A stretch of DNA of 39,638 bases from Bacteroidota bacterium (GTDB taxonomy: Bacteria > Bacteroidota > Bacteroidia > B-17B0 > Aurantibacillaceae). Each line of letters opens with the position of its first letter. The first letter of the stretch is position 1. Positions 8,942 through 30,839 of the stretch are shown piece after piece. The position numbers and the translations under genes were made by a program. The DNA lies in assembly GCA_016185125.1 (NCBI GenBank), contig JACPOC010000018.1:1-39638 (forward strand), written 5' to 3'. The notes beneath the pieces are model-generated. The model was not told the origin of the DNA, searched no databases, and saw only the letters and a program-made list of their open reading frames with translations.

Positions 8942-11900
8942 TTGACATTACAAATTATACAAGGCAAAGGGTTTATTTTTGTTAATCTGACGAAGAAGTT
9001 ACTGATTTTTTTACTAGTACTTCCCATCCTCATTTTCGCGCAAAGCTCAAAGAAATACCCTGCATTATTGTGGAAAATAACAGGGCAAGGGCTTAAAAAA
9101 CCATCTTACTTATATGGAACCATGCATGTAAGTAACCGTGTTGCCTATCATCTCTCCGAACAGTTTTTTGAAGCGCTGAAAAGTGTTGATGTTGTTGGTT
9201 TAGAAACCAATCCGGGAGAGTGGCTTCAAAATATGGAGAAGACCGGTGAGTTAAATCAGATTAATCAATTTAGTAATCCTTATGCTTACAATCAAAGCTT
9301 TTATAAGTCCACTTTTTCACTCACGCCACCGGATAAACGCTTGTTGCAGGGTATTTTAAGTTACGATCCTGATATTATAAATGGTTTACTTTACCGACAT
9401 AACCGCAGCAAAGAAAATTTTGAAGAAAGTACCTACATAGATCTTTTTATTTATCAATCTGCTTCTAAATTAAACAAGCAAGTGATAAGTCTGGAAGATT
9501 TTGTTCAGGCAGAAATCAAAGCAAGGCTGTCTGCCATACCCGATGATGCTTCGGAAGAAAGCAACGGCTATAAAGATTATTATTCTGCCGCTCAAAAAAT
9601 AGAAGATGCTTACCGTGATGGAAATTTGGATATGCTAGACAGCCTAAGTAAATTAACTACTACACGAAATACTCAAAAATATTTGATCGTTGATCGAAAT
9701 GTTTTTTTTGCGAATACAATAGATTCGGTACTAAAAACAAAATCATTATTCAGCGGAGTTGGAGCTGCCCATTTACCGGGAGAAGAAGGTGTGATTGAAC
9801 TTTTGCGTAAAAAAGGATATACCGTTGAGCCTTTGGTTTCAAAAAACACAAACAAGAGCGACAGAATTAGGGACGATTTAGAACGCAAAGTTAAGGCAGT
9901 TTCATTCAGCAGGCAATTTATATCAGACTCTTCCTTATCTGTAAACCTTCCTGGCAAAATAACGCAGATAGTAAATTTGGAGAATGTAAAATATTATATT
10001 CACGCGGATATGGTGAACGGAAGTTTTTACACCATTGTGCGTTTGAAATATTTTGGCCCTCTGTTTAATGTGAGTCCGGCTCAAATGATGCAAAAAATCG
10101 ACAGTTTACTTTTTGAATATATTCCTGGCAAAATAATTTCCAAGAAAGAGCTTGTTTCCAATAATGGATTAAAAGGAATTGAAATAATAAATAAAACAAG
10201 AAGCGGCGATGAGCAGCATTATCAAATCTATTTTTCAGATATTGAAATGATCTTATTTAAATTGGGGGGTAAACAGCAATACGCTACAGGCAGCGAGGCA
10301 AAGCAATTCTTTACTTCCATTCAGTTTCAAACCAAAAGCGATGAACTGCTTGAATTTTCGCCCAAAACCAAAGGCTTTAGGTTGAAACTACCTGCCAATT
10401 TTAGTTATGTAAAAAACGAAGGCTCCTCTTTAAAAGGATTAGTTGAAGATGTTTATGCTTATCAAAAAGGCAGTAAACAATATTATGGATTAAAGCATTC
10501 GGTTTACAACGATTTCGATTATCTTGAAGAAGATACGTTTGAATTAAATCAATTCGCTAAGAATATTACGGTAAACTTTAATTATAATGAGAGTGTAAAA
10601 AATGAAATTACTGAGGATTTGGGCTTTCCCTGCATTAAAATAAAATCAAAGAATAAGGCAGGAAACAATTTTTCTGCTAAGCTTTATATTAAAGGGGTTC
10701 ACTATTATCTTGTTTACCTGATATCTGAAAAAGAAATTGATTTTAATAATGACTATTTTACCTCATTTAAATTAATTGATTTTGAACTTGCTAATCCTGT
10801 AAAGGAAATTACTGATCAAAGTTTTTATTTTAAGGCAGTGGATGAAGTTACCAATAATGCCCTAAGTCGATTTAATGATTATTACGCCAGGGAGTTTGAA
10901 CGATCAAAAAGCGAAAAAACAAAAGAAAGCGAGCTAAAAATATTTGATTTTAATTATAAGACTTCCTCAAAATCTTATTTTTCACCTTCCAGCAATGAAT
11001 ATGTAAGTATAACTTACGAAAAGTTTAATGACTACGATCATAAAACCATTAAAGAGTTTGAGGAGTTTCTCTTGAAAAATATAAAGGAGCAAAATTCTTT
11101 AGTTCCTACACACATCAAAATTGAGAATAAGAATGGCTTATATTCATTTAAAACTATTTTGAAAGATACTGCTACACGCAGGGCTATAGATTTGCGAATG
11201 CTTATAAAAGGTGGAATAAGGTATGAGATAAGTACCGCTTTTGATACTGTGATTGGCTTAAAGAATTGGGCAAAAGGGTTTATGGATTCATTTACATTAA
11301 AGGATACTGTGATAGGCAAGAATATTTTCGAAAATAAATTCGCTAAATTATTAGATGATCTTTGCAGTTCTGATACCACTGTTCGCAAGGAAGCTAATTC
11401 CTCATTGTTAGGAGGAGTAAGCATGCAGAAAAAGTATGGTGAAGATTTTGTGAAGTTTGTGACCAGTAAAAAAATTGATCTTGTTAATGAGGATAGTAAG
11501 GCTCAGTTGCTTGTAAATGGTGGAACTCTTGAAAATGATAAGATAATTACTCCGTATAAAAATCTTTATAAGCAATATACGGATAGTTTTTATCTGCAAT
11601 TGTGTTTACTAAAAGGTCTGGCTTATTTAAAAACACAAAGATCTTATGATACTTTTCTGACTTTGATAATGGCTGAAACACCATTAGTGGGAGCTGAAAG
11701 TACGGTTAGTGATGTGTTTGCAGCGCTTAATGATTCTCTTGAATTATGCAAAGGTTTTTTTCCTTCGATGCTTACACTTACTCGTTACGACGAATATAAA
11801 TCGTCCGTTTATACACTTCTTGCAAGCTTGGTAAATAAAAAAATCATTTCAGCTTCGGTCTATAAAGATCAAAAAGAAAATATTCTTGCGGATGCAAATC

Positions 11901-12727
11901 TTGCTTTAAAGCGTTATAACCCCGGCAAGCCTTCTTCTGCAACTGATTATTCTAAAGAGTATGAGTACATTGATAAAAATGTAAAGGAGCTGGCAGAATC
12001 TATTCAGAATAGTTTGGATGGCTTAGCTAACAATAATCAATACAAAGGCACGAATTATTTGAAGAACATGGAAGCAATAAACCGACCGCAATTGGTTAAT
12101 TACGCTTATGTTATTGCGCCTTGGTATAAAACAGATGAAAAGGCAAAGTTGTTTTTTACCAAGTTATCAAAAATAAAGGCAGAAAACATTACCATGCCTG
12201 TACTGATTAATTTACTTAAACAAAATATTGTAATTAATGATACACTGATTGATTATTATTGCCGTAATAAAATTACCCGTGCGTTTTTTTACAGCGAACT
12301 TGACAAACAAAAACTGCTGGAAAAATTCAATAAAAAATATCTTAGTCAGGAAAGTATTGTTCAGTCGGTTGTTTACAGTGAAAAGCAATTGGCAGGAATA
12401 TATAAATATGATAAAGATAAAAAACTAAAAGATAGTCTTGTATTTATTAAGCAGGTTGCGGCTAAGAATAAATTTCAAACCGGTAAATTATATATATACA
12501 AATCATCTAAATCAAAAAGTGAGGATGAAACCTGGGCAATTGCCTTTGTGGCTAATTCAAAAAACATTATAAATCCTAAAGTGGATGTAATTAATATTGC
12601 TTTTATTGTTGACACTTCAAAAAGTGAGGAGGAGAATCTGAACCAAGTGCTGAGTGATTTTTATTTAAGCTTTAGGAAAAGAGCCGTTGCGCCCAATAAC
12701 AATGTTTACCTTCCGGGGTATAATTAA
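8942..12727 (+). CDS. Very large secreted TraB/GumN-family protein
   Basis: The N-terminal third (about 40-300) is a TraB/GumN domain, a putative metalloprotease-like fold. It has the SYLYGTMH motif (GTMH at 59-62), VDVVGLETNP and VGAAHLPGEEGVIELLRKKGY (H277). Usual family members have about 300 aa; this one has some 1,250. The rest holds two stretches of similar strand-rich character (about 305-460 and 470-630) and an alpha-helical, HEAT-like C-terminal half. I do not recognise a named family there. A signal peptide (TKKLLIFLLVLPILIFAQ) lies at 17-34, unusually deep if translation starts at TTG 8942. A CTG at 8987, 5 bases after a TATTTTTG box, would place it at the N-terminus. The stop overlaps the stop of the convergent glycosyltransferase by three bases. 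Confidence 0.85.
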   Translation: MTLQIIQGKGFIFVNLTKKLLIFLLVLPILIFAQSSKKYPALLWKITGQGLKKPSYLYGTMHVSNRVAYHLSEQFFEALKSVDVVGLETNPGEWLQNMEKTGELNQINQFSNPYAYNQSFYKSTFSLTPPDKRLLQGILSYDPDIINGLLYRHNRSKENFEESTYIDLFIYQSASKLNKQVISLEDFVQAEIKARLSAIPDDASEESNGYKDYYSAAQKIEDAYRDGNLDMLDSLSKLTTTRNTQKYLIVDRNVFFANTIDSVLKTKSLFSGVGAAHLPGEEGVIELLRKKGYTVEPLVSKNTNKSDRIRDDLERKVKAVSFSRQFISDSSLSVNLPGKITQIVNLENVKYYIHADMVNGSFYTIVRLKYFGPLFNVSPAQMMQKIDSLLFEYIPGKIISKKELVSNNGLKGIEIINKTRSGDEQHYQIYFSDIEMILFKLGGKQQYATGSEAKQFFTSIQFQTKSDELLEFSPKTKGFRLKLPANFSYVKNEGSSLKGLVEDVYAYQKGSKQYYGLKHSVYNDFDYLEEDTFELNQFAKNITVNFNYNESVKNEITEDLGFPCIKIKSKNKAGNNFSAKLYIKGVHYYLVYLISEKEIDFNNDYFTSFKLIDFELANPVKEITDQSFYFKAVDEVTNNALSRFNDYYAREFERSKSEKTKESELKIFDFNYKTSSKSYFSPSSNEYVSITYEKFNDYDHKTIKEFEEFLLKNIKEQNSLVPTHIKIENKNGLYSFKTILKDTATRRAIDLRMLIKGGIRYEISTAFDTVIGLKNWAKGFMDSFTLKDTVIGKNIFENKFAKLLDDLCSSDTTVRKEANSSLLGGVSMQKKYGEDFVKFVTSKKIDLVNEDSKAQLLVNGGTLENDKIITPYKNLYKQYTDSFYLQLCLLKGLAYLKTQRSYDTFLTLIMAETPLVGAESTVSDVFAALNDSLELCKGFFPSMLTLTRYDEYKSSVYTLLASLVNKKIISASVYKDQKENILADANLALKRYNPGKPSSATDYSKEYEYIDKNVKELAESIQNSLDGLANNNQYKGTNYLKNMEAINRPQLVNYAYVIAPWYKTDEKAKLFFTKLSKIKAENITMPVLINLLKQNIVINDTLIDYYCRNKITRAFFYSELDKQKLLEKFNKKYLSQESIVQSVVYSEKQLAGIYKYDKDKKLKDSLVFIKQVAAKNKFQTGKLYIYKSSKSKSEDETWAIAFVANSKNIINPKVDVINIAFIVDTSKSEEENLNQVLSDFYLSFRKRAVAPNNNVYLPGYN
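8974..8981 (+). promoter_or_regulatory. Possible -7 box inside the 5' end of the TraB-family gene
   Basis: TATTTTTG, 5 bases before CTG 8987, has the same geometry as the box before bioB. If used, translation from TTG 8942 is impossible and the gene would have a leaderless CTG start. Confidence 0.3.
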
Positions 12728-15784: not shown

Positions 15785-18700
15785 TTGAAAATAAAGCTAT
15801 TTATATTTTTTTCGTTTTTAATTGCTTTCTGCGGCATCTTTAATGCACAGCAATTGCGATTTAAATATATTACCAGCGAAGATGGTTTAAGCACCAATTA
15901 CGTTACTTCTATCATTCAAGACGAAAAAGGATTTATGTGGTTTGGCACGCAGGATGGTTTGAATAAATACGACGGCTATCAGGTTAAAGTATTTAAAAAC
16001 GATCCTACCAATGTTAATTCTTTGTCTTCTTCTGAAATTACGTGTATCAGGCAATTAAGGCCGGATTTAATAGTAATTGGTACCTTGGCAGGCATTAATT
16101 TTTTTAATCCCGTTAATCAATCTTTTAGTAGATTAAAGCATAAAGGGTTGGAAGTAAAGATTACAGCAATTTGCCCATTGGATAGTACCAAAATTCTTAT
16201 AGGCACCGAAGAAGGACTTTTTTCTTTTAATATAAACACCAAGGAAATTATTCCAATTTCGCAACGCAATGGTAAAATAAATATCACAGCTCTTTATTAC
16301 GATGGAAAAACCGCATATATAGGAACCTTTGATAAAGGATTGTGGACATTTAAGAACAATAAACTTGATAAAGTTAATTTGATTAAAATGGATTACAGCG
16401 ATATAAAGCTTGAAGAACTTAATCACATTACAGAAATAAAACATTATGGCGGAAAATTGTATTTGGGCACATTTGGCAAAAGTATTTTTGTAGCAGACCT
16501 ACATTTATTTGAAATAGAAAGAAAACTACAGTTAAGTGACTTTGAAGAAAGCGATTTTATAAATAACTTCATTGTAAAAAATAACCGTTTGTATATTGGA
16601 ACAAATTATGGATTTATAATTTATAATTTATTAAACCAAAGTAAAGTGTTTTATTCTAAAAATGAAGTAGAAGTTAGTCCCTTAAACCATAATAAAATTA
16701 AATTTGTTTTCTTAGATAAAGAAGAGAATGTTTGGTTAGGGACAGAACAAGGCGGGGTTAATGTAGCGTATAAACAATCATTAAAATTTCCAAATTCCAA
16801 CTCTAAGTACGAATCAAATTTTACCAATGTTTTTTCATTTTTGGAAGATAATAATGGAATTGTTTGGTTAGGAGGAGTAAAAATTTTCCACGCTTTAAAT
16901 ACTCAAACCGGAAAATATATTGATTACTCCCATTTATTAGAAACAAATACCGCGCTGAGCCTAATAAAAGAATCTGAAAATATTTACTGGATCGGTACTT
17001 GGGGCTTGGGTCTTTTTCGATTTGATAAAAGTTCTGGAAAAATCACAAATAAACTTCTCAGTAAAGAATTAGGTAGTACCGTTTTATGTTTAAATATTGT
17101 AGGTGATAATCTATACGCAGGTACAGTTGGGGATGGCTTATTTAAAATAAATTTAAAATCTTTTGAGACTAAACGTTTTACAGAAAAGGACGGGCTTCCT
17201 AATCCAAGTATAAATACAATGTTCATAGATTCCAAAAAAAATGTATGGTTGGGTACCTACGATGGCGGTTTGGTAAAAATGAGCGGATTTGATAAAAACG
17301 GAAAGCTGCCTATAGTGCATAAATTCAGAAATGAAGGAAAAGGCGGTCAAATAGCCTCAAATATTGTACTTGGAATAAATGAAGATAAAAATAGTACTAT
17401 TTGGGTTACAACTTCAAACGGCCTAAGTAAGTTATTGCCTGATAATTCATTTTATAACTTTTACGAAAAAGACGGCTTAATAAATTCCTATTTATATTGC
17501 ATTTTAAAAGATAGTTTAAATGATTTTTGGATGAGCTCTAACGGAGGGCTTATCCATTTTAACCCTCTATTACCTGAAAAAGAAATAACTTTTAAAAATT
17601 ACAGTATTAAGGATGGCTTGGTTAATAAAGAATATAATCAGGGTTCCGGTTTCTCAAGCCCTTCAGGTATAATGTATTTTGGAGGTGCCCGTGGGTTTAA
17701 TCTATTTAGGCCTACCGCAATTAAAGATAATCTTCAACCTCCACCCGTGTATGTAGTAAATTATAAAAGAGGTGGAAAAGATGTAGTAACCGATTCTTCC
17801 ATCACACACAAAAAACATTTAAAGTTAAGCTGGCGCGAAAATTACTTTCAGTTTGAGGTTGTTGCTTTGGATTATACAGATCCTTTAAAAAACAAATTCA
17901 GATATAAGTTAGAAGGATATGACGAGGATTGGTCGTCACCAACAAATGTCCGCTATGTGTCTTATACCGAACTACCCGGAGGCGAATACGTGTTTAAAGT
18001 AAAAGCCGCCAACAATGATGGAATTTGGAACGAAACTCCCTACGAAATTTCTATTACCGTGGTGCCTCCTTTTTGGAAAACAAAATGGTTTTATGTACTC
18101 ATCATTATTTTTGCCGTGGGAGGAATCTATGCGTTTACACAATACCGAACCAAGGCCATCAAAAAAGAGAATAAAATTCTTGAAAACAAAGTTGCCGAAC
18201 GCACTAAAGAATTGGAAGAAAAGAACAGAGACATTACCAGCAGTATTGAATACGCAAAACGCATTCAAGAGGCTATACTTCCCTCAAAAGATCATATATT
18301 TTCACGCTTCGAGCGCGCTTTTATTTTATATAAACCTAAAGATATTGTAAGCGGAGATTTTTATTGGTTCGGAGAAAAATCAGGGGTTAAAATTTTTGCC
18401 GTTGTAGATTGCACAGGCCATGGGGTACCCGGTGCTTTTATGAGTATGATTGGCCATAATCTCCTGCATCAAATCATTAAGGAAAAATCTATTGTTGATC
18501 CGGGCGAAATTTTAAATCAACTCCACAAAGGCGTGCAGCTAGCTTTAAGACAGGGTCAAAATGAAATCAATACCAACGACGGTATGGATCTGTCTATTAT
18601 AGCCATTAACGACAATTTGGGAGAAATAAAATGGGCCGGCGCAAACAGACCTTTGGTTTTAATAAATACCCAAGGAACAATGGTAAAATATGATGGAAAT

Positions 18701-18988
18701 AAATATCCCGTTGGAGGAGCCCAAATGGATGTGAACAGGGTATTCACTACCCACACCATAAAAAAAACACTTCCCGCAATGGCCTATATGTTTACCGATG
18801 GATATGCCGATCAATTTGGCGGCGATAAAGGCAAAAAATTTATGGTTAAACGATTTAACGAAGTGCTGTTAACTATTTATTCGCAAACAAGCGAGAATCA
18901 AAAAAGAGAATTGGAAAAACACCTCGAAGACTGGCGAAGGAATCACGAGCAGGTAGATGATGTTTTAGTAGTGGGTATTGCAATTTAA
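15785..18988 (+). CDS. Two-component-type sensor fused to SpoIIE/PP2C phosphatase (SiaA-like)
   Basis: A 1067-aa membrane protein. The order is: signal peptide (1-21, ending IFNAQ); a long periplasmic beta-propeller of reg_prop type (repeats such as MWFGTQDGL, VWLGTEQGG, YWIGTWGLG, VWLGTYDGG, about 25-680); a Y_Y_Y domain (YKLEGYDEDWSS to about 755); one membrane helix (about 767-786); a coiled coil (790-830); and a SpoIIE-type PP2C phosphatase. The phosphatase keeps its metal-binding acids: SGDFYW near 855, VVDCTGHGVPGAFMS near 873, NDGMDL, FTDGYADQFGGD and DDVLVVG at the end. It has no histidine kinase domain. The start is TTG, giving a clean signal peptide. With the SiaB- and SiaC-like genes downstream it would be the signal-gated phosphatase that dephosphorylates the SiaC-like protein. 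Confidence 0.93.
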   Translation: MKIKLFIFFSFLIAFCGIFNAQQLRFKYITSEDGLSTNYVTSIIQDEKGFMWFGTQDGLNKYDGYQVKVFKNDPTNVNSLSSSEITCIRQLRPDLIVIGTLAGINFFNPVNQSFSRLKHKGLEVKITAICPLDSTKILIGTEEGLFSFNINTKEIIPISQRNGKINITALYYDGKTAYIGTFDKGLWTFKNNKLDKVNLIKMDYSDIKLEELNHITEIKHYGGKLYLGTFGKSIFVADLHLFEIERKLQLSDFEESDFINNFIVKNNRLYIGTNYGFIIYNLLNQSKVFYSKNEVEVSPLNHNKIKFVFLDKEENVWLGTEQGGVNVAYKQSLKFPNSNSKYESNFTNVFSFLEDNNGIVWLGGVKIFHALNTQTGKYIDYSHLLETNTALSLIKESENIYWIGTWGLGLFRFDKSSGKITNKLLSKELGSTVLCLNIVGDNLYAGTVGDGLFKINLKSFETKRFTEKDGLPNPSINTMFIDSKKNVWLGTYDGGLVKMSGFDKNGKLPIVHKFRNEGKGGQIASNIVLGINEDKNSTIWVTTSNGLSKLLPDNSFYNFYEKDGLINSYLYCILKDSLNDFWMSSNGGLIHFNPLLPEKEITFKNYSIKDGLVNKEYNQGSGFSSPSGIMYFGGARGFNLFRPTAIKDNLQPPPVYVVNYKRGGKDVVTDSSITHKKHLKLSWRENYFQFEVVALDYTDPLKNKFRYKLEGYDEDWSSPTNVRYVSYTELPGGEYVFKVKAANNDGIWNETPYEISITVVPPFWKTKWFYVLIIIFAVGGIYAFTQYRTKAIKKENKILENKVAERTKELEEKNRDITSSIEYAKRIQEAILPSKDHIFSRFERAFILYKPKDIVSGDFYWFGEKSGVKIFAVVDCTGHGVPGAFMSMIGHNLLHQIIKEKSIVDPGEILNQLHKGVQLALRQGQNEINTNDGMDLSIIAINDNLGEIKWAGANRPLVLINTQGTMVKYDGNKYPVGGAQMDVNRVFTTHTIKKTLPAMAYMFTDGYADQFGGDKGKKFMVKRFNEVLLTIYSQTSENQKRELEKHLEDWRRNHEQVDDVLVVGIAI

Positions 18989-18999
18989 AAACTTAATAC

Positions 19000-19007
19000 T
19001 ATATTTG
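19000..19007 (+). promoter_or_regulatory. -7 box of the lipoprotein-siaB-siaC group
   Basis: TATATTTG is a perfect match, 22 bases before ATG 19030. It suggests that the downstream genes can be transcribed apart from the phosphatase gene. Confidence 0.6.
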
Positions 19008-19029
19008 TATATCATAAAATAAAGTGAAC

Positions 19030-19947
19030 ATGAAAAGATCAATTAAAATATTTTTATCGGTTAGCTGCATAGCCGCCCTTATCACTTTTGGTTGTAAGAA
19101 AAAAGAAACTACCGAAGTAGATAACGAAACCCAATCAGCGGTGGATAACGCCGTAGCAGATCAGGAATATAGCGCTGTGGTACCAAACGTGCAAAATTTT
19201 GCAATTAACACTAAAGGAACCGGTGCAAATTCCGGAAAATTAGCTGCCGCGCCTTGCGACACCTTAACCTGGTTAAATAAAAGCACTTCCTATACCTATC
19301 CCGGTTCAACAACTTATCCTATGGCAGATACAGCCTTGAATACCACAGGCGATCTTACAAAATATAAAAAAGCTCCTATTTATGAATTAAACCTTGCCAC
19401 AAATTGTGCTCAGGGCTTTACCGATGGAAAAATCCGTTCCGGTAAATGGATTATTAGAATTACAGGTCCTTTAAAAACTGCAGGCAATCAAATGATAATT
19501 AAATTGCTTAATCATAAAACCAATAATGCAATAACTTATGCCTGTGATAGTATGGTCATTACAACGGTTGCATCTAGCACATTATCAACCACTTATAACA
19601 TTAAACTGATAAATGGGGTTTGTCAAAGCTCTAGTTGGGTTATTAAATACAGCTCCGACAGAACCATTACGCACTATGCTAAAGGAAATCCGTACGGAAG
19701 CGACCCTGTAACTGAGCTATTTGGAAGTGCAAACGGAACTAACCGCCAGGCAAGAGCATTTACAGTGAGCATTCCATCCTCTTCTCCTTTAATTAAACAT
19801 AAAGCTTGTCAGTTTATTGATAAAGGAATAATGACTTTAACCCCCGAAGGCTTTAAAGAGCGTATAGTAAATTTTGGTCCGGGAACCTGCGATGATGACG
19901 CAACCTTTACAGTTAACGGAAACACCGTTGCCTTTAAACTTAAATAA
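19030..19947 (+). CDS. Lipoprotein of unknown function inside the Sia-like cluster
   Basis: The first 22 residues form a lipoprotein signal with lipobox cysteine C22 (ALITFGCKKK). The mature part is acidic at first (TTEVDNETQSAVDNAVADQE), then strand-rich with several cysteines, and ends GTCDDDATFTVNGNTVAFKL, a tail seen in many Bacteroidota surface lipoproteins. I do not recognise a named domain. GTG 19024 is also possible, but ATG 19030 gives the shorter, typical signal. It lies 41 bases after the phosphatase gene and 25 bases before the SiaB-like gene and has its own -7 box. It could be a ligand-binding or accessory part of the switch, or simply co-transcribed. Confidence 0.85.
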   Translation: MKRSIKIFLSVSCIAALITFGCKKKETTEVDNETQSAVDNAVADQEYSAVVPNVQNFAINTKGTGANSGKLAAAPCDTLTWLNKSTSYTYPGSTTYPMADTALNTTGDLTKYKKAPIYELNLATNCAQGFTDGKIRSGKWIIRITGPLKTAGNQMIIKLLNHKTNNAITYACDSMVITTVASSTLSTTYNIKLINGVCQSSSWVIKYSSDRTITHYAKGNPYGSDPVTELFGSANGTNRQARAFTVSIPSSSPLIKHKACQFIDKGIMTLTPEGFKERIVNFGPGTCDDDATFTVNGNTVAFKLK

Positions 19948-19972
19948 CAAGGGCTCATTGGTAAACCCTATC

Positions 19973-20527
19973 ATGGTGGATGTTTTTGATATTTATGATA
20001 AAATGGAGCGGAATAATATTCTGCTCTCATTTAAAGGTGAAATAACATCCGATCTTCTCACTTCCATCCTCCAGATAATGGAAAATAAAATGGATAATAT
20101 GCAGGAAGAACCTAAAATGAAAAAAAAGGTTTACAATGTATTAGTGGAATGTCTGCAAAACCTTTATCACCATTTAGATGATTGCGCCGATGTGGCCGGT
20201 ATAAATGAAAAAGTGCGCTCTGCTATTTTTATGATAGGCAAACTTGAAAACAAATATTCAATCTTTACCGGTAACTATATTTTAAATGAAAACATTCACG
20301 GCCTTAAAAGCCGTTTGGATGAAGTTAATTCTTTAACAAAAGAAGAGTTAAAAGAATATTATAAAAAAGTGCTTAATAATGGCGAAATGTCGCTTAAAGG
20401 CGGCGGCGGTTTAGGCATGATTGATATTGCACGCAAAACAGGCGAAAAATTAGAATATAATTTTTTGGATATTGATAATAAAGTTTCTTTCTTTACACTA
20501 AATATAAAAGTATCACAACAACAATAA
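19973..20527 (+). CDS. siaB: SiaB-like protein kinase (DUF6272 type)
   Basis: A cytoplasmic 184-aa protein resembling the SiaB family, whose Pseudomonas member phosphorylates the partner SiaC. It shows a GHKL-like N box (VLVECLQNLYHH, about 57-68, with the conserved E and N) and a glycine-rich loop GGGGLGMIDIARKTG (about 143-157) for ATP binding. The conserved opening is MVDVFDIYDKMERNN. The open frame extends upstream into the lipoprotein gene, but ATG 19973 gives the family N-terminus and leaves a 25-base gap. It is followed 24 bases later by the SiaC-like gene. The symbol is given by resemblance; no SiaD-type diguanylate cyclase is in the window. Confidence 0.85.
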   Translation: MVDVFDIYDKMERNNILLSFKGEITSDLLTSILQIMENKMDNMQEEPKMKKKVYNVLVECLQNLYHHLDDCADVAGINEKVRSAIFMIGKLENKYSIFTGNYILNENIHGLKSRLDEVNSLTKEELKEYYKKVLNNGEMSLKGGGGLGMIDIARKTGEKLEYNFLDIDNKVSFFTLNIKVSQQQ

Positions 20528-20551
20528 GTACAATATTAAAAATTAAAAATT

Positions 20552-20932
20552 ATGGATAAATACGCAATTGAAGGCTCTCCAAAAACCCCAAGCATCACGT
20601 TTGATTTAAACGGCGGAGTATTAGAAATTAAAGGTCGTTCAATACCTGAAAATTCTATTGAATTTTATAAACCTTTAGTAGATGCTTTAGATAAGTATAC
20701 ATCGGCTGCAAAACCTGCCACCACAGTTAACGTGCAGTTAGAATATTTTAATACTTCATCCTCAAAATGTATTTTAGATGTATTTAAAAAACTGGAAGGA
20801 ATTCACAAAAGCGGAAGCGCAGTTACCATTAACTGGCATTACGAGGAAGATGATGAAGATATGTTAGAAGCAGGCGAAGATTATCAAGCCATCATTAACG
20901 TGCCATTTAAAATGGTAATGGTTAACGAATAA
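20552..20932 (+). CDS. siaC: SiaC-like regulatory phosphoprotein (DUF1987)
   Basis: A 126-aa cytoplasmic protein of the DUF1987/SiaC family. It opens with IEGSPKTPSITFDLNGGVLEIKG in two parts, as family members do, and carries the core YFNTSSSK with Thr68, the position I recall as the phosphosite of Pseudomonas SiaC. It is the natural substrate of the SiaB-like kinase just upstream and of the SpoIIE phosphatase four genes up. In Pseudomonas, dephospho-SiaC activates a diguanylate cyclase; the target here is unknown. It ends the cluster; a terminator-like hairpin follows at 21059. Confidence 0.88.
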   Translation: MDKYAIEGSPKTPSITFDLNGGVLEIKGRSIPENSIEFYKPLVDALDKYTSAAKPATTVNVQLEYFNTSSSKCILDVFKKLEGIHKSGSAVTINWHYEEDDEDMLEAGEDYQAIINVPFKMVMVNE

Positions 20933-21058
20933 ATCTCTTTAGGAAACTTCTAAACATGTTTTTAAAAACTTGGAATACTAACGTATTTGAGGCTTTTTAA
21001 AAATGAAGTTCAACAAAAAAGCAATTTATTGAACCTCCTTTACTTATTTTATATTATA

Positions 21059-21085
21059 CCTCCTGCCAAAGCAGGGGGTTTTTTT
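21059..21085 (+). terminator. Rho-independent terminator after the Sia-like cluster
   Basis: CCTCCTGC and GCAGGGGG pair (one T-G wobble) around a CAA-type loop, directly followed by seven T. It lies about 130 bases after the SiaC-like stop and just before the aldolase promoter. Confidence 0.8.
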
Positions 21086-28472: not shown

Positions 28473-30839
28473 CTATTTTTGGCCGTAGCCCTTGCCATAA
28501 CCGTAGCCATAACCGTAGCCATAACTGTAGCCGTAACCCTGGTAATAGTACCGATTGCCCAAAGTTTTAACACCATTGAGTAAAAGTGAAATGTTTGTAA
28601 GATTGTTGTTTGCAATCAGGTCTTCAATAAAAGTAATTACGCGTTTGGTGCTTGATCGTGTGTTTAATACAAAAATGGAGGCATCTACATATTGTATGAG
28701 GTAAACCGAATCGGATAAGAGGCCGGCCGGAGGTGTATCAATGATAACGTAATCAAAATTAGCTTTGGCATATTCGATCAATTCCTTCATTTTTTCAGCC
28801 AATACCAATTCTGAGGGATTGGGTGGAATAGGGCCGGCGAACATGCAATATAAATTAGGAATATTAGTTTCAGTAATAATCTCTTCTAAAGAATTTTGAC
28901 CGGTAATAAAAGTAGTAATGCCTTTTGTTTGAGCCGGAACATTGAAGCGTTTAAAAATCCGTGGTTTATGAAGATCGAGTTCCAGTAAAATGGTTTTTTT
29001 ACCGCTTTTGGATAAGGTGGTGGCCAAATTGGTGCTGGTAAAGGTTTTCCCTTCGCCCGGTAAAAAAGAAGTGACTAAAAAAGTTTTGGCATTAACGCCC
29101 ACATTGGCATATTGTAAATTAGTACGGAAGTTGCGGAAGGATTCTGAAACGGCGGAGGTGGGACTATTTTCCACTACAATTCCCTCGTCAGCTCCCCCTT
29201 TAATGTAAGGTAAAACCCCTATAAGGGGAAGATCGGTTAATTCTTTTAAATGTTCAACAGTTTTTATTTTAGAAAGTAAAAATGTTCTAATTACAATAAT
29301 TAATAAGGTTAGTAAAAGACCAACTGTTAAAAACTGTTTTTCAAGGGCGGGTTTATTAGGGGAGTCGATTCCTGCAAAACGGGGAGATTCAACAATTTTA
29401 ATATCCGGTATAATGCTGGCACGTGCAATTTTTGTACTGGCTTTTTTCTCTAAAAGAAAATTATATAATTGCTCACTTACCGTGGCCTTGCGTTGAATAT
29501 TTAAAATATCGCGTTGTTTGCCGGGAATTGTTTTGGCGTTGTTGATGTAATTGGTAATTTCCTTGTTTACACTTTCCGTTTGCATGGCAATGGCTTTACG
29601 CGTATTATTTATGTAAACCAATAAATCCTGTTTGGTTTTTTTAATACTGGTTTTAAGGTCGGTTATTAAAGGATTTGTTTCCTTTACTACATTATACAAC
29701 CCGTTTAATTGAATCTGTTTATTGTAAAGATCATTTACCGCCTGCAACATAAAACCGCTTTTTTCTGTAACAAAAATGTTAGGCGGAAGAAACTGCGGAT
29801 CTTTATCTTCAATAATGTATTTTTCAAGGTCGTTTAAAGCGTCTTGCTGAAGCTTTAAAGAAGATTTTTGATTGTCGTATTGGCCAATTTTGCTTAAAAA
29901 ATCACTCTGCTCCCAATCTAAATTAATAATAGATTTTTTTTCCTTATAATTCTGCATGGTATCTTCAATGCTTTTAAGGGCAAAGCTTATTTCGCTCAAT
30001 TGCCTGTCTATATAAGAAATTGTGCGGTCATTCAAATCATATTTTGATTGTAATTTGCTTTCGGCATAAACCGTGTTAAGGGTATCTAAAATAAGAACCG
30101 CTCGTTCCGGTAAAACATCTTTTAAATCAATTTTTAAAATTTGCGTATAATCAGGGTTTTCTACGGTAAGATTTTGTCTAATGTTTTGAATCAAGTAATC
30201 TTGGCTATGAATACTGAACTGGTAAAAAATATTTTTGAGAGCATCGGCTGTTTTTTCGGCCAGGTTTTCCGATTTTATTACTTTAATGGGCAAATCAAGG
30301 TCTACCAATTCAACTCCAAATTCACCCTTTTTTTGTTGTTTAACCCCGTTTTGCTCGTAACTTATTTCATAATGCTGAAAATCAATAACTCTGAAATCAA
30401 ATAGTTGTTCGTAAAAAGCAGGATTGATGCTGTTTACCACTATTTTATAAGGCATGCCACTAAATTGCTCAGTAGTTCTAACCTTGCCAACAATAAAATA
30501 GGAAACCTGTATTTTATCAAGCAGTTTATCCACTACTTTTTTTGAGAGATCGTATGATTGCAGAATACGTGTTTCGTTGAGGTTATCTACATAAGAAGCG
30601 CTTGAGTAAAAATTAGCATCGGTAACTACATTATTCTGGTAATAAGTATCGTTATTTTTTAATAAAAATTCGGTAGAAGCCTTATAAATATTGGTTAAAC
30701 GGTAAACATAAAAGGAGCCCGCGGCATAAAAAAGAGGTAAAATAACTAAAGGAACCCACCAGTTTGATTTAAGTATACGCAAGATAAGACTTACGTCCTT
30801 TTGCGATAATATTCCTTGTTTTTTTTTTAAATTAGCCAC
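28473..30839 (-). CDS. Wzc-like polysaccharide co-polymerase / tyrosine autokinase
   Basis: 788-aa inner-membrane protein that sets chain length and drives export of capsule or exopolysaccharide. The N-terminal Wzz domain has a first helix at about 28-50 (WWVPLVILPLFYAAGSFYVY), then a long coiled-coil periplasmic part (250-430) and a second helix near 515-535. The cytoplasmic BY-kinase domain has Walker A FLPGEGKT (about 593), Walker A' LLELDLHKPR and Walker B YVIIDTPP (about 698). The C-terminus is a tyrosine tail with 11 Tyr in about 25 residues, mostly Gly-Tyr repeats, the expected autophosphorylation site. No Wza-type exporter gene is in the window. It has its own -7 box and is divergent from the exosortase operon. 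Confidence 0.93.
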   Translation of the reverse strand: MANLKKKQGILSQKDVSLILRILKSNWWVPLVILPLFYAAGSFYVYRLTNIYKASTEFLLKNNDTYYQNNVVTDANFYSSASYVDNLNETRILQSYDLSKKVVDKLLDKIQVSYFIVGKVRTTEQFSGMPYKIVVNSINPAFYEQLFDFRVIDFQHYEISYEQNGVKQQKKGEFGVELVDLDLPIKVIKSENLAEKTADALKNIFYQFSIHSQDYLIQNIRQNLTVENPDYTQILKIDLKDVLPERAVLILDTLNTVYAESKLQSKYDLNDRTISYIDRQLSEISFALKSIEDTMQNYKEKKSIINLDWEQSDFLSKIGQYDNQKSSLKLQQDALNDLEKYIIEDKDPQFLPPNIFVTEKSGFMLQAVNDLYNKQIQLNGLYNVVKETNPLITDLKTSIKKTKQDLLVYINNTRKAIAMQTESVNKEITNYINNAKTIPGKQRDILNIQRKATVSEQLYNFLLEKKASTKIARASIIPDIKIVESPRFAGIDSPNKPALEKQFLTVGLLLTLLIIVIRTFLLSKIKTVEHLKELTDLPLIGVLPYIKGGADEGIVVENSPTSAVSESFRNFRTNLQYANVGVNAKTFLVTSFLPGEGKTFTSTNLATTLSKSGKKTILLELDLHKPRIFKRFNVPAQTKGITTFITGQNSLEEIITETNIPNLYCMFAGPIPPNPSELVLAEKMKELIEYAKANFDYVIIDTPPAGLLSDSVYLIQYVDASIFVLNTRSSTKRVITFIEDLIANNNLTNISLLLNGVKTLGNRYYYQGYGYSYGYGYGYGYGKGYGQK
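28481..28542 (-). repeat. 12-base tandem repeat coding the Gly-Tyr tail
   Basis: About four imperfect copies of a 12-base unit (plus strand CGTAGCCATAAC) encode the GYGY tail of the Wzc-like kinase. Two inner copies are identical. The unit length is a multiple of three, so copy number can change without a frameshift. Confidence 0.75.

What the first reader, a model, noticed from the sequence alone, without database searches (positions are those of the whole stretch)
15785..20932. SiaABC-like partner switch driven by a reg_prop/Y_Y_Y sensor
The window holds a SpoIIE phosphatase with all metal-binding acids, a SiaB-like kinase with N box and glycine loop, and a SiaC-like protein with YFNTSSSK (Thr68). 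In Pseudomonas these three form a phosphorylation switch controlling a diguanylate cyclase. Here the phosphatase is fused to a propeller/Y_Y_Y periplasmic sensor normally found on hybrid histidine kinases, and no diguanylate cyclase is adjacent. The switch must have another target, perhaps polysaccharide or envelope genes nearby. This is the best candidate for an undescribed signalling system here.
Basis: partly seen in the sequence, partly recalled or inferred. Interest (0 to 1): 0.75.

Follow-up and report, generated by a model that had tools for sequence, protein, structure and literature searches.

The report
Four-gene phosphorylation switch in Bacteroidia
Many Bacteroidia carry a conserved four-gene signalling operon that looks like the Pseudomonas biofilm switch SiaABC, but with a different kind of receptor, an extra lipoprotein and, since these bacteria almost never have the enzyme that the Pseudomonas switch controls, an unknown target.

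Summary
The operon has four: a reg_prop/Y_Y_Y sensor fused to a SpoIIE/PP2C phosphatase, an undescribed lipoprotein (LIP, 19030-19947), SiaB and SiaC. LIP and a SpoIIE protein both precede siaB in 50 of 70 Bacteroidia loci with room upstream; flanking genes change with distance. Catalytic residues and the SiaC phospho-site (N67-T68-S69-S70) are kept. The target cannot be SiaD-like: the own genome has no GGDEF match, nor have 119 of 123 SiaC-bearing genomes in a class sample. Most SiaC residues that contact SiaD in Pseudomonas are replaced, some with reversed charge, in 81 of 81 close orthologues. This genome has 30 SpoIIE, 2 SiaC and 2 STAS hits; of 60 genomes, all 40 with ten or more SpoIIE carry SiaC, against 2 of 12 with three or fewer. 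SiaC may thus be a hub for many sensor-phosphatases. A target among nearby envelope genes is not supported. Lead: a TerB-ABC exporter-like gene follows other siaC copies in 10 of 76 loci. New variant of a known kind; phosphorylation untested.

The parts
15785..18988 (+). Sensor-phosphatase (SiaA-like), 1067 aa: signal peptide, periplasmic reg_prop propeller and Y_Y_Y, one TM helix (about residues 768-784), coiled-coil linker, SpoIIE/PP2C domain. The longest frame starts with TTG.
   Evidence: Pfam; sequence; PP2C aligns with 6k4e_A at 1.1e-33; five acidic positions identical in 44-45 of 45. Signal peptide, TM helix and topology read by eye.
18140..18985 (+). Coiled coil and SpoIIE/PP2C catalytic part
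   Evidence: Stretch searched; Pfam SpoIIE residues 870-1064
19030..19947 (+).
   Evidence: No Pfam or NCBIfam hit; 47 sequences aligned, Cys22 invariant; +3 Lys 47 of 47; AlphaFold2 pLDDT 88.6
19973..20527 (+). SiaB-like kinase (DUF6272), 184 aa from ATG 19973
   Evidence: Glu that aligns with the predicted catalytic E61, Asn and glycine loop in 77-78 of 78
20552..20932 (+). SiaC-like phosphoprotein, 126 aa; predicted phospho-acceptor Thr68
   Evidence: N67/T68/S69/S70 in 81 of 81
20753..20755 (+). Codon of Thr68 (in NTSSSK)
   Evidence: Position 68 of the SiaC frame from 20552
21058..21079 (+). Terminator-like hairpin with T run, about 125 bases after siaC: possible end of the operon
   Evidence: Consensus scan, 9 pairs, 6 G-C; 7 sites found against 4.0 expected by chance, so weak on its own

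Best explanation
It is a four-component partner switch. The periplasmic propeller, probably together with the LIP lipoprotein, senses an envelope signal. Through one membrane helix and a coiled coil it switches on the cytoplasmic PP2C, which removes phosphate from Thr68 of SiaC. SiaB puts the phosphate back with ATP. Unphosphorylated SiaC then binds and changes a partner that is not a GGDEF diguanylate cyclase, through a surface with altered charge. Because SpoIIE phosphatases greatly outnumber SiaC, SiaC probably collects signals from several sensors. Shown: gene content, conserved operon, conserved catalytic and acceptor residues, absence of GGDEF, altered interface residues. Inferred: the phosphorylation cycle, the role of LIP, the direction of control, the hub.
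For: Each protein matches its Pseudomonas counterpart with a solved structure; SpoIIE acids 44-45 of 45, SiaB Glu/Asn/Gly 77-78 of 78, SiaC N67-S70 81 of 81. Operon: 79 of 81 loci (80 fetched plus window) have SiaB directly upstream of SiaC; of 70 with over 1.5 kb upstream of SiaB, 55 have LIP, 54 a SpoIIE protein, 50 both; the two go together (50/5/4/11, Fisher p 2e-6, not corrected for kinship). In a class sample of 198 genomes 27 of the 30 best LIP hits have SiaC 623-837 bases downstream on the same strand, in 12 families. GGDEF: 0 of 60 genomes, own included, 6 of 198 in the class; SiaC in 123 of those 198, 119 of them without a GGDEF match. SiaD-contact residues listed in PMC8457831 (passage) are replaced, among them D29->R, D79->K, R103->D, L107->A, D114->I in 81 of 81. 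Own genome: 30 SpoIIE, 2 SiaC, 2 STAS (PF01740) hits; 40 of 40 genomes with ten or more SpoIIE have SiaC, 2 of 12 with three or fewer, Spearman 0.75 over 60.
Against: No phosphorylation or binding was tested. The 80 fetched SiaC relatives are the best 80 of 554 and 74-97% identical to the query, so '81 of 81' is one lineage's state, not 81 events. LIP is missing from 4 of the 54 loci with SpoIIE, SpoIIE from 5 of the 55 with LIP, both from 11 of 70 (some lie near contig ends). LIP paralogues also occur away from SiaC. Of 76 other SiaC loci 36 have no SiaB or SpoIIE neighbour and none has LIP, so the four-gene arrangement holds for this orthologous group only. 37 of the 60 genomes are one genus, which inflates the SpoIIE-SiaC correlation; SpoIIE counts near 44 are capped. 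Substrate families other than SiaC and PF01740 were not counted. The target is unknown.
Confidence: 0.72

Rival explanations
1. It is an ordinary SiaABC(D) system: SiaC controls a diguanylate cyclase encoded elsewhere in the genome.
For: Full homology of A, B and C, with T68 conserved. Four SiaC-bearing genomes of the class sample do have GGDEF hits (G121, G229 over the cut-off; G153, G184 below it).
Against: No GGDEF at E <= 0.001 in the own genome (99.9% complete) or in the 59 relatives searched with it; 119 of 123 SiaC-bearing genomes in the class sample have none; most SiaD-contact residues replaced.
Confidence: 0.04
2. The switch is closed on itself: SiaB is the effector. Unphosphorylated SiaC sequesters SiaB, and SiaB (as RsbW-type kinases do) binds some other client such as a sigma factor when SiaC is phosphorylated.
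For: Classical partner switches work this way (established knowledge, RsbW/SpoIIAB, recalled). A lone SiaB without a SiaC beside it exists in this genome (C54). An ECF sigma gene lies downstream in close relatives.
Against: The ECF family clusters with 0 of 35 distant loci. In the window's SiaB Pfam finds DUF6272 and no HATPase_c family at E <= 0.001.
Confidence: 0.17
3. LIP is not part of the pathway but a passenger or a regulated output that happens to sit in the operon.
For: LIP paralogues sit away from SiaC: of 15 unlinked loci that I chose, 13 gave a LIP with my HMM and 2 of those 13 lay beside SpoIIE genes. L037 and L038 keep sensor, SiaB and SiaC without LIP.
Against: The operon's LIP subfamily is kept in 12 families and co-occurs with the sensor-phosphatase (50/5/4/11, p 2e-6).
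Confidence: 0.3

Closest known systems
SiaABC(D) of Pseudomonas aeruginosa (PLoS One 2020 PMC7647112; eLife 2021 PMC8457831; passages read)
   Same: PP2C phosphatase, DUF6272 kinase and PF09345 phosphoprotein in one operon; tested catalytic residues; Thr68 at the same position; the position aligned with the F of the F612 loop is F in 35 and Y in 10 of 45
   Different: Sensor is a reg_prop propeller with Y_Y_Y instead of a HAMP-bearing receptor with two membrane-spanning regions; extra lipoprotein gene between A and B; no GGDEF in the genome; most SiaD-contact residues replaced, some with reversed charge; all three proteins score below NCBIfam's SiaA, SiaB and SiaC equivalog cut-offs
Hybrid two-component systems (HTCS) of Bacteroidetes (recalled)
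   Same: Periplasmic reg_prop propeller plus Y_Y_Y
   Different: Output is a SpoIIE phosphatase; no histidine kinase, receiver or AraC domain was found at E <= 0.001
RsbU/RsbW/RsbV and SpoIIE/SpoIIAB/SpoIIAA partner switches (recalled, not read)
   Same: PP2C, kinase and STAS-like phosphoprotein logic
   Different: Kinase is DUF6272, substrate is PF09345; no sigma factor gene stays with the cassette in distant loci

Membership tests
SiaABC(D) partner switch | SpoIIE/PP2C phosphatase with metal-binding acids | tested here: met
   five acidic positions, 44-45 of 45
SiaABC(D) partner switch | SiaB-family kinase with catalytic Glu, N box and glycine loop | tested here: met
   NF038262 167 bits over cut-off 85; residues 77-78 of 78
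SiaABC(D) partner switch | SiaC with Thr68 | tested here: met
SiaABC(D) partner switch | A, B and C linked in one operon | tested here: met
   Window spacing; 54 of 70 loci with room have a SpoIIE gene upstream of SiaB-SiaC
SiaABC(D) partner switch | SiaD diguanylate cyclase as target | tested here: not met
   GGDEF in 0 of 60 genomes, own included; 6 of 198 in class
SiaABC(D) partner switch | SiaC residues that contact SiaD | tested here: not met
   Y65, N67, T68, S69 kept and E110 -> D; D29, Y31, I71, M75, D79, R103, L107, D114 replaced in 81 of 81, Q10 replaced too (P in 80, K in 1)
SiaABC(D) partner switch | NCBIfam equivalog cut-offs for SiaA, SiaB and SiaC | tested here: not met
   182.5 of 700, 93.2 of 225, 95.8 of 150 bits
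SiaABC(D) partner switch | Reversible phosphorylation of Thr68 | not testable with these tools
   Needs protein biochemistry
Hybrid two-component system (HTCS) | reg_prop and Y_Y_Y periplasmic sensor | tested here: met
Hybrid two-component system (HTCS) | Histidine kinase, receiver and AraC output in the same chain | tested here: not met
   No such Pfam hit at E <= 0.001 in the 1067 aa
Surface lipoprotein with export signal C-X-K-(D/E)2-X (PMC5080379, passages) | K at +3 followed by two acids | tested here: not met
   The window has CKKKE: K at +3, K at +4, E at +5. In 47 sequences K at +3 in 47, +4 is K in 25 and E in 12. Other export signals are not excluded
Known solved fold for LIP | Clear structural match in the PDB | tested here: inconclusive
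   Foldseek best E 0.058; VIA-align Z up to 10.6 to an outer-membrane barrel at rmsd 5.1 over 169 residues

The most novel reading that the evidence does not exclude
Bacteroidia have built a large Ser/Thr signalling network in which dozens of sensor-phosphatases (SpoIIE) converge on a handful of SiaC proteins that act without c-di-GMP, on new targets such as a TerB-ABC exporter found in the siaD position of other SiaC operons; the window's operon, with its lipoprotein co-sensor, is a widely kept input of that network.
Probability: 0.4. Interest if true: 0.78.

Novelty: new variant of a known kind. Interest (0 to 1): 0.6.

Why it matters
In the papers that my searches of the held library brought up, the PF09345 kind of SiaC appears only as the activator of one Pseudomonas diguanylate cyclase. 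Here the family abounds in a class sample that almost lacks the GGDEF domain, so it must have another job there. It makes a concrete open question testable: what does SiaC bind when there is no SiaD, and where do the many Bacteroidia SpoIIE phosphatases (30 in this genome) send their signal? It also names a conserved lipoprotein family with no described domain as a possible co-sensor.

Tried and rejected
Target among the neighbours: flanking genes were compared in 81 loci. asnB, glycosyltransferase, aldolase, accD and ECF sigma follow kinship, not the cassette: of 35 loci set aside as distant, 0 keep the last three and 2 each keep the first two (a very weak ECF-like hit of 26 bits at L081 is not counted). 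Rejected.

LIP as a family exclusive to the switch: rejected. 156 of 198 class genomes have a LIP hit (at most 12 candidates per genome were scored, so counts are lower bounds), and the own genome has two more. Of 15 unlinked loci that I chose, 2 gave no LIP with my HMM and 2 of the other 13 lay beside SpoIIE genes (L182, L189).

LIP fold: Foldseek in the PDB gave no match with E <= 0.001. VIA-align gave middling Z to outer-membrane beta-barrels and to oxysterol-binding domains. I read no function from this.

Other upstream genes in loci without LIP or sensor (ten proteins scanned): four of 414-513 aa directly before SiaB have no Pfam hit (L055, L059, L062, L065); L068 has a PAS-SpoIIE phosphatase; the others were unrelated genes. 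Not followed further.

Literature: no paper on PF09345-type SiaC in Bacteroidota came up (open-licence PMC only; the term Y_Y_Y was read as 'yyy', so that search was weak; of 501 papers only 25 were listed, and of 42 only 12). The name SiaC also belongs to an unrelated Capnocytophaga sialidase. PMC9239204 (passages) mentions SiaABCD only as the P. aeruginosa case. Chen et al. 2020 (SiaB-SiaC complex) was seen only as a citation. One of two structure predictions and all Rfam and RNA tools were left unused.

Rows dropped: 11 of 81 loci were left out of the 70: 2 without SiaB (L082 with 180 bases upstream of SiaC; L090 with 1857 bases, where the absence may be real) and 9 with at most 1.5 kb upstream of SiaB. 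In one search, 4 of 80 fetched loci had no SiaC ORF after my ORF filter and were dropped. In one search, 5 of 89 SiaC hits of 170 aa or more were dropped. The SiaC rows and the LIP rows are capped lists.
Full report
WHAT IS THERE. The window is contig 13 of a 3.34 Mb genome in 59 contigs, 99.9% complete. The best matches of its SiaC in named records are metagenome bins of Bacteroidota. On the + strand lie four closely spaced genes: 15785-18988, 19030-19947, 19973-20527 and 20552-20932, with gaps of 41, 25 and 24 bases, then 183 bases with a terminator-like hairpin before the next gene. The first is a sensor-phosphatase: reg_prop repeats, Y_Y_Y, one transmembrane helix, coiled coil and SpoIIE (helix, coiled coil and signal peptide read by eye). 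The third is SiaB-like, the fourth SiaC-like.

THE FOURTH COMPONENT. The second gene encodes a lipoprotein (LIP) without a Pfam or NCBIfam hit. In 47 aligned sequences the lipobox cysteine is invariant, with Lys at +3 in all 47. AlphaFold2 gives a confident model (pLDDT 88.6, pTM 0.81) of a helix followed by many strands. No clear relative was found in the PDB (Foldseek best E 0.058; VIA-align Z up to 10.6 to an outer-membrane barrel at rmsd 5.1). The surface-export signal C-X-K-(D/E)2-X described for Capnocytophaga lipoproteins (PMC5080379, passages) is not met in the window's LIP, so I think it likelier that LIP faces the periplasm, where it could meet the propeller; this is inference.

THE OPERON IS CONSERVED. 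The best 80 of 554 SiaC relatives in named genome records were fetched. With the window, 79 of 81 loci have SiaB directly upstream of SiaC; of the other two, L082 has 180 bases upstream and L090 has 1857. Of the 70 with more than 1.5 kb upstream of SiaB, 55 have LIP, 54 a SpoIIE protein, 50 both and 11 neither; the two go together (Fisher p 2e-6, not corrected for kinship). At least one of the 54 SpoIIE proteins (L068) is a PAS type without a propeller hit. In a class sample of 198 Bacteroidia genomes, 27 of the 30 best LIP hits have a SiaC hit 623-837 bases downstream on the same strand, in 12 families; the three others had none among the listed SiaC rows. Flanking genes are not part of it: aldolase and accD families occur in 43 and 40 loci but in 0 of the 35 that I set aside as distant (L059-L094 without L087). 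In 80 further SiaC loci from related genomes LIP was found in none, so the four-gene form belongs to this orthologous group.

THE CHEMISTRY IS KEPT. Five acidic PP2C positions are identical in 44-45 of 45 homologues over 1000 aa, and the SiaB Glu, Gln, Asn and loop glycines in 77-78 of 78. In SiaC, N67, T68, S69 and S70 are identical in 81 of 81; in 84 SiaC sequences of the other loci position 68 is Thr in 60, Ser in 23 and Leu in 1. In P. aeruginosa SiaB phosphorylates and SiaA dephosphorylates SiaC at T68 (PMC7647112, abstract and passages), so the same cycle is the natural reading here, but it was not tested.

THE TARGET IS NOT A GGDEF DIGUANYLATE CYCLASE. GGDEF was found in 0 of 60 genomes (own plus 59 relatives), while 8 of 14 control genomes were positive; SiaC is in 50 of the same 60, up to 15 copies. 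In the class sample SiaC is in 123 of 198 and GGDEF in 6 of 198; four of these six also have SiaC (G121, G229 over the family cut-off; G153, G184 below it), so 119 of 123 SiaC-bearing genomes have no GGDEF match. Of the SiaC residues reported to touch SiaD (PMC8457831, passage; the residue letters agree with the numbering used), Y65, N67, T68 and S69 are kept and E110 is D, but D29 became R, Y31 I, I71 S, M75 L, D79 K, R103 D, L107 A and D114 I in all 81, and Q10 became P in 80 and K in 1. The surface is conserved in its own way, which fits a different partner. These 81 are close relatives (74-97% identical to the query).

MANY PHOSPHATASES, FEW KNOWN SUBSTRATES. The own genome has 30 SpoIIE hits, 2 SiaC, 2 STAS of PF01740 (other STAS families were not counted) and 4 DUF6272 domains in three genes. 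Over 60 genomes SpoIIE and SiaC counts correlate (Spearman 0.75); 40 of 40 genomes with ten or more SpoIIE have SiaC, 2 of 12 with three or fewer do. SpoIIE counts near 44 are capped and 37 of the 60 genomes are one genus. The simplest reading is that SiaC is a major substrate of Bacteroidia SpoIIE phosphatases and collects several inputs.

A LEAD ON OUTPUT. Of the 80 further SiaC loci fetched (my pick from the capped list), 76 gave a SiaC ORF; within three genes 33 have SiaB, 29 a SpoIIE protein, 22 both and 36 neither. In 10 of the 76 a protein of about 1020 aa lies downstream on the same strand, next after the last SiaC-bearing gene in 9 and one gene later in 1; the one scanned has TerB, ABC_tran and ABC2_membrane domains (L120). 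[quoted passage not shown] Among the window-type loci such a gene lies near SiaC in 5, but on the other strand, and the own genome's copy (49% identity, C43:10221-13274) has no SiaC, SiaB, SpoIIE or LIP gene in the 16 kb around it. So it is a candidate effector for other SiaC branches and only weakly for this one.

HOW IT PROBABLY WORKS. Envelope signal, then propeller (with LIP), then coiled coil, then PP2C on, then SiaC loses its phosphate, then SiaC binds its target; SiaB reverses this. Inferred: every arrow. Shown: parts, order, residues, lack of GGDEF.

NOVELTY. The held open-licence library gave no paper on PF09345-type switches in Bacteroidota. The eLife paper says that DUF1987 is widespread and suggests that such proteins modulate adjacent proteins (passages), so the general idea is in print; I did not find the lipoprotein, the propeller sensor, the near-absence of GGDEF or the altered interface in the passages that I saw. 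I file it as a new variant of a known kind.

Noticed in passing
L114:6386-9496 and nine other SiaC loci (L097, L103, L107, L110, L115, L120, L125, L133, L152); own genome C43:10221-13274 (L201:6222-9305): A protein of about 1020 aa (TerB + ABC_tran + ABC2_membrane in the one scanned, L120) follows siaC in 10 of 76 further SiaC loci; a protein of about 300 aa of one family, lipoprotein-like by eye, lies near it in all 10.
   Followed up: partly
L095:7616-9111 (own genome C17): Second SiaC of the genome beside a kinase of 374 aa with two SiaB domains in one chain, facing a TPR-type SpoIIE phosphatase (TPR by eye). Double-SiaB chains recur in related genomes (L114 by Pfam; L126, L143, L147 by length only).
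   Followed up: partly
L107:6369-7439; also L103, L110, L115, L133: Proteins of 356-377 aa that match SiaC (Pfam on L107: C-terminal third) with an undescribed N-terminal part, just after a normal SiaC.
   Followed up: no
L096:5463-6038 (own genome C54): A lone SiaB gene without SiaC, directly after a deoxynucleoside kinase gene.
   Followed up: no
L055:4918-6456, L059:199-1440, L062:6123-7367, L065:1866-3107: Proteins of 414-513 aa without any Pfam hit directly upstream of SiaB in loci where neither LIP nor a SpoIIE gene was found: a possible alternative input.
   Followed up: no
window 8942-12727: Protein of 1261 aa in which only residues 42-297 match a family (TraB/PrgY/GumN); the rest has no Pfam hit.
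   Followed up: no
window 28473-30839: Wzz-type chain-length protein with an AAA_31 ATPase domain (recalled as the build of tyrosine autokinases), so an exopolysaccharide-type gene does lie in the window, about 7.5 kb from the switch.
   Followed up: no
L027:6533-7399, L030:3294-6539: LIP (L027) and the sensor-phosphatase (L030) are each split over two frames in these bins; sequencing error or decay not told apart.
   Followed up: no
L177-L191: LIP paralogues away from SiaC; in 13 of these 15 loci LIP was found again, and in L182 and L189 it is next to SpoIIE phosphatases (L189 also has a SiaB about 4.5 kb away).
   Followed up: partly
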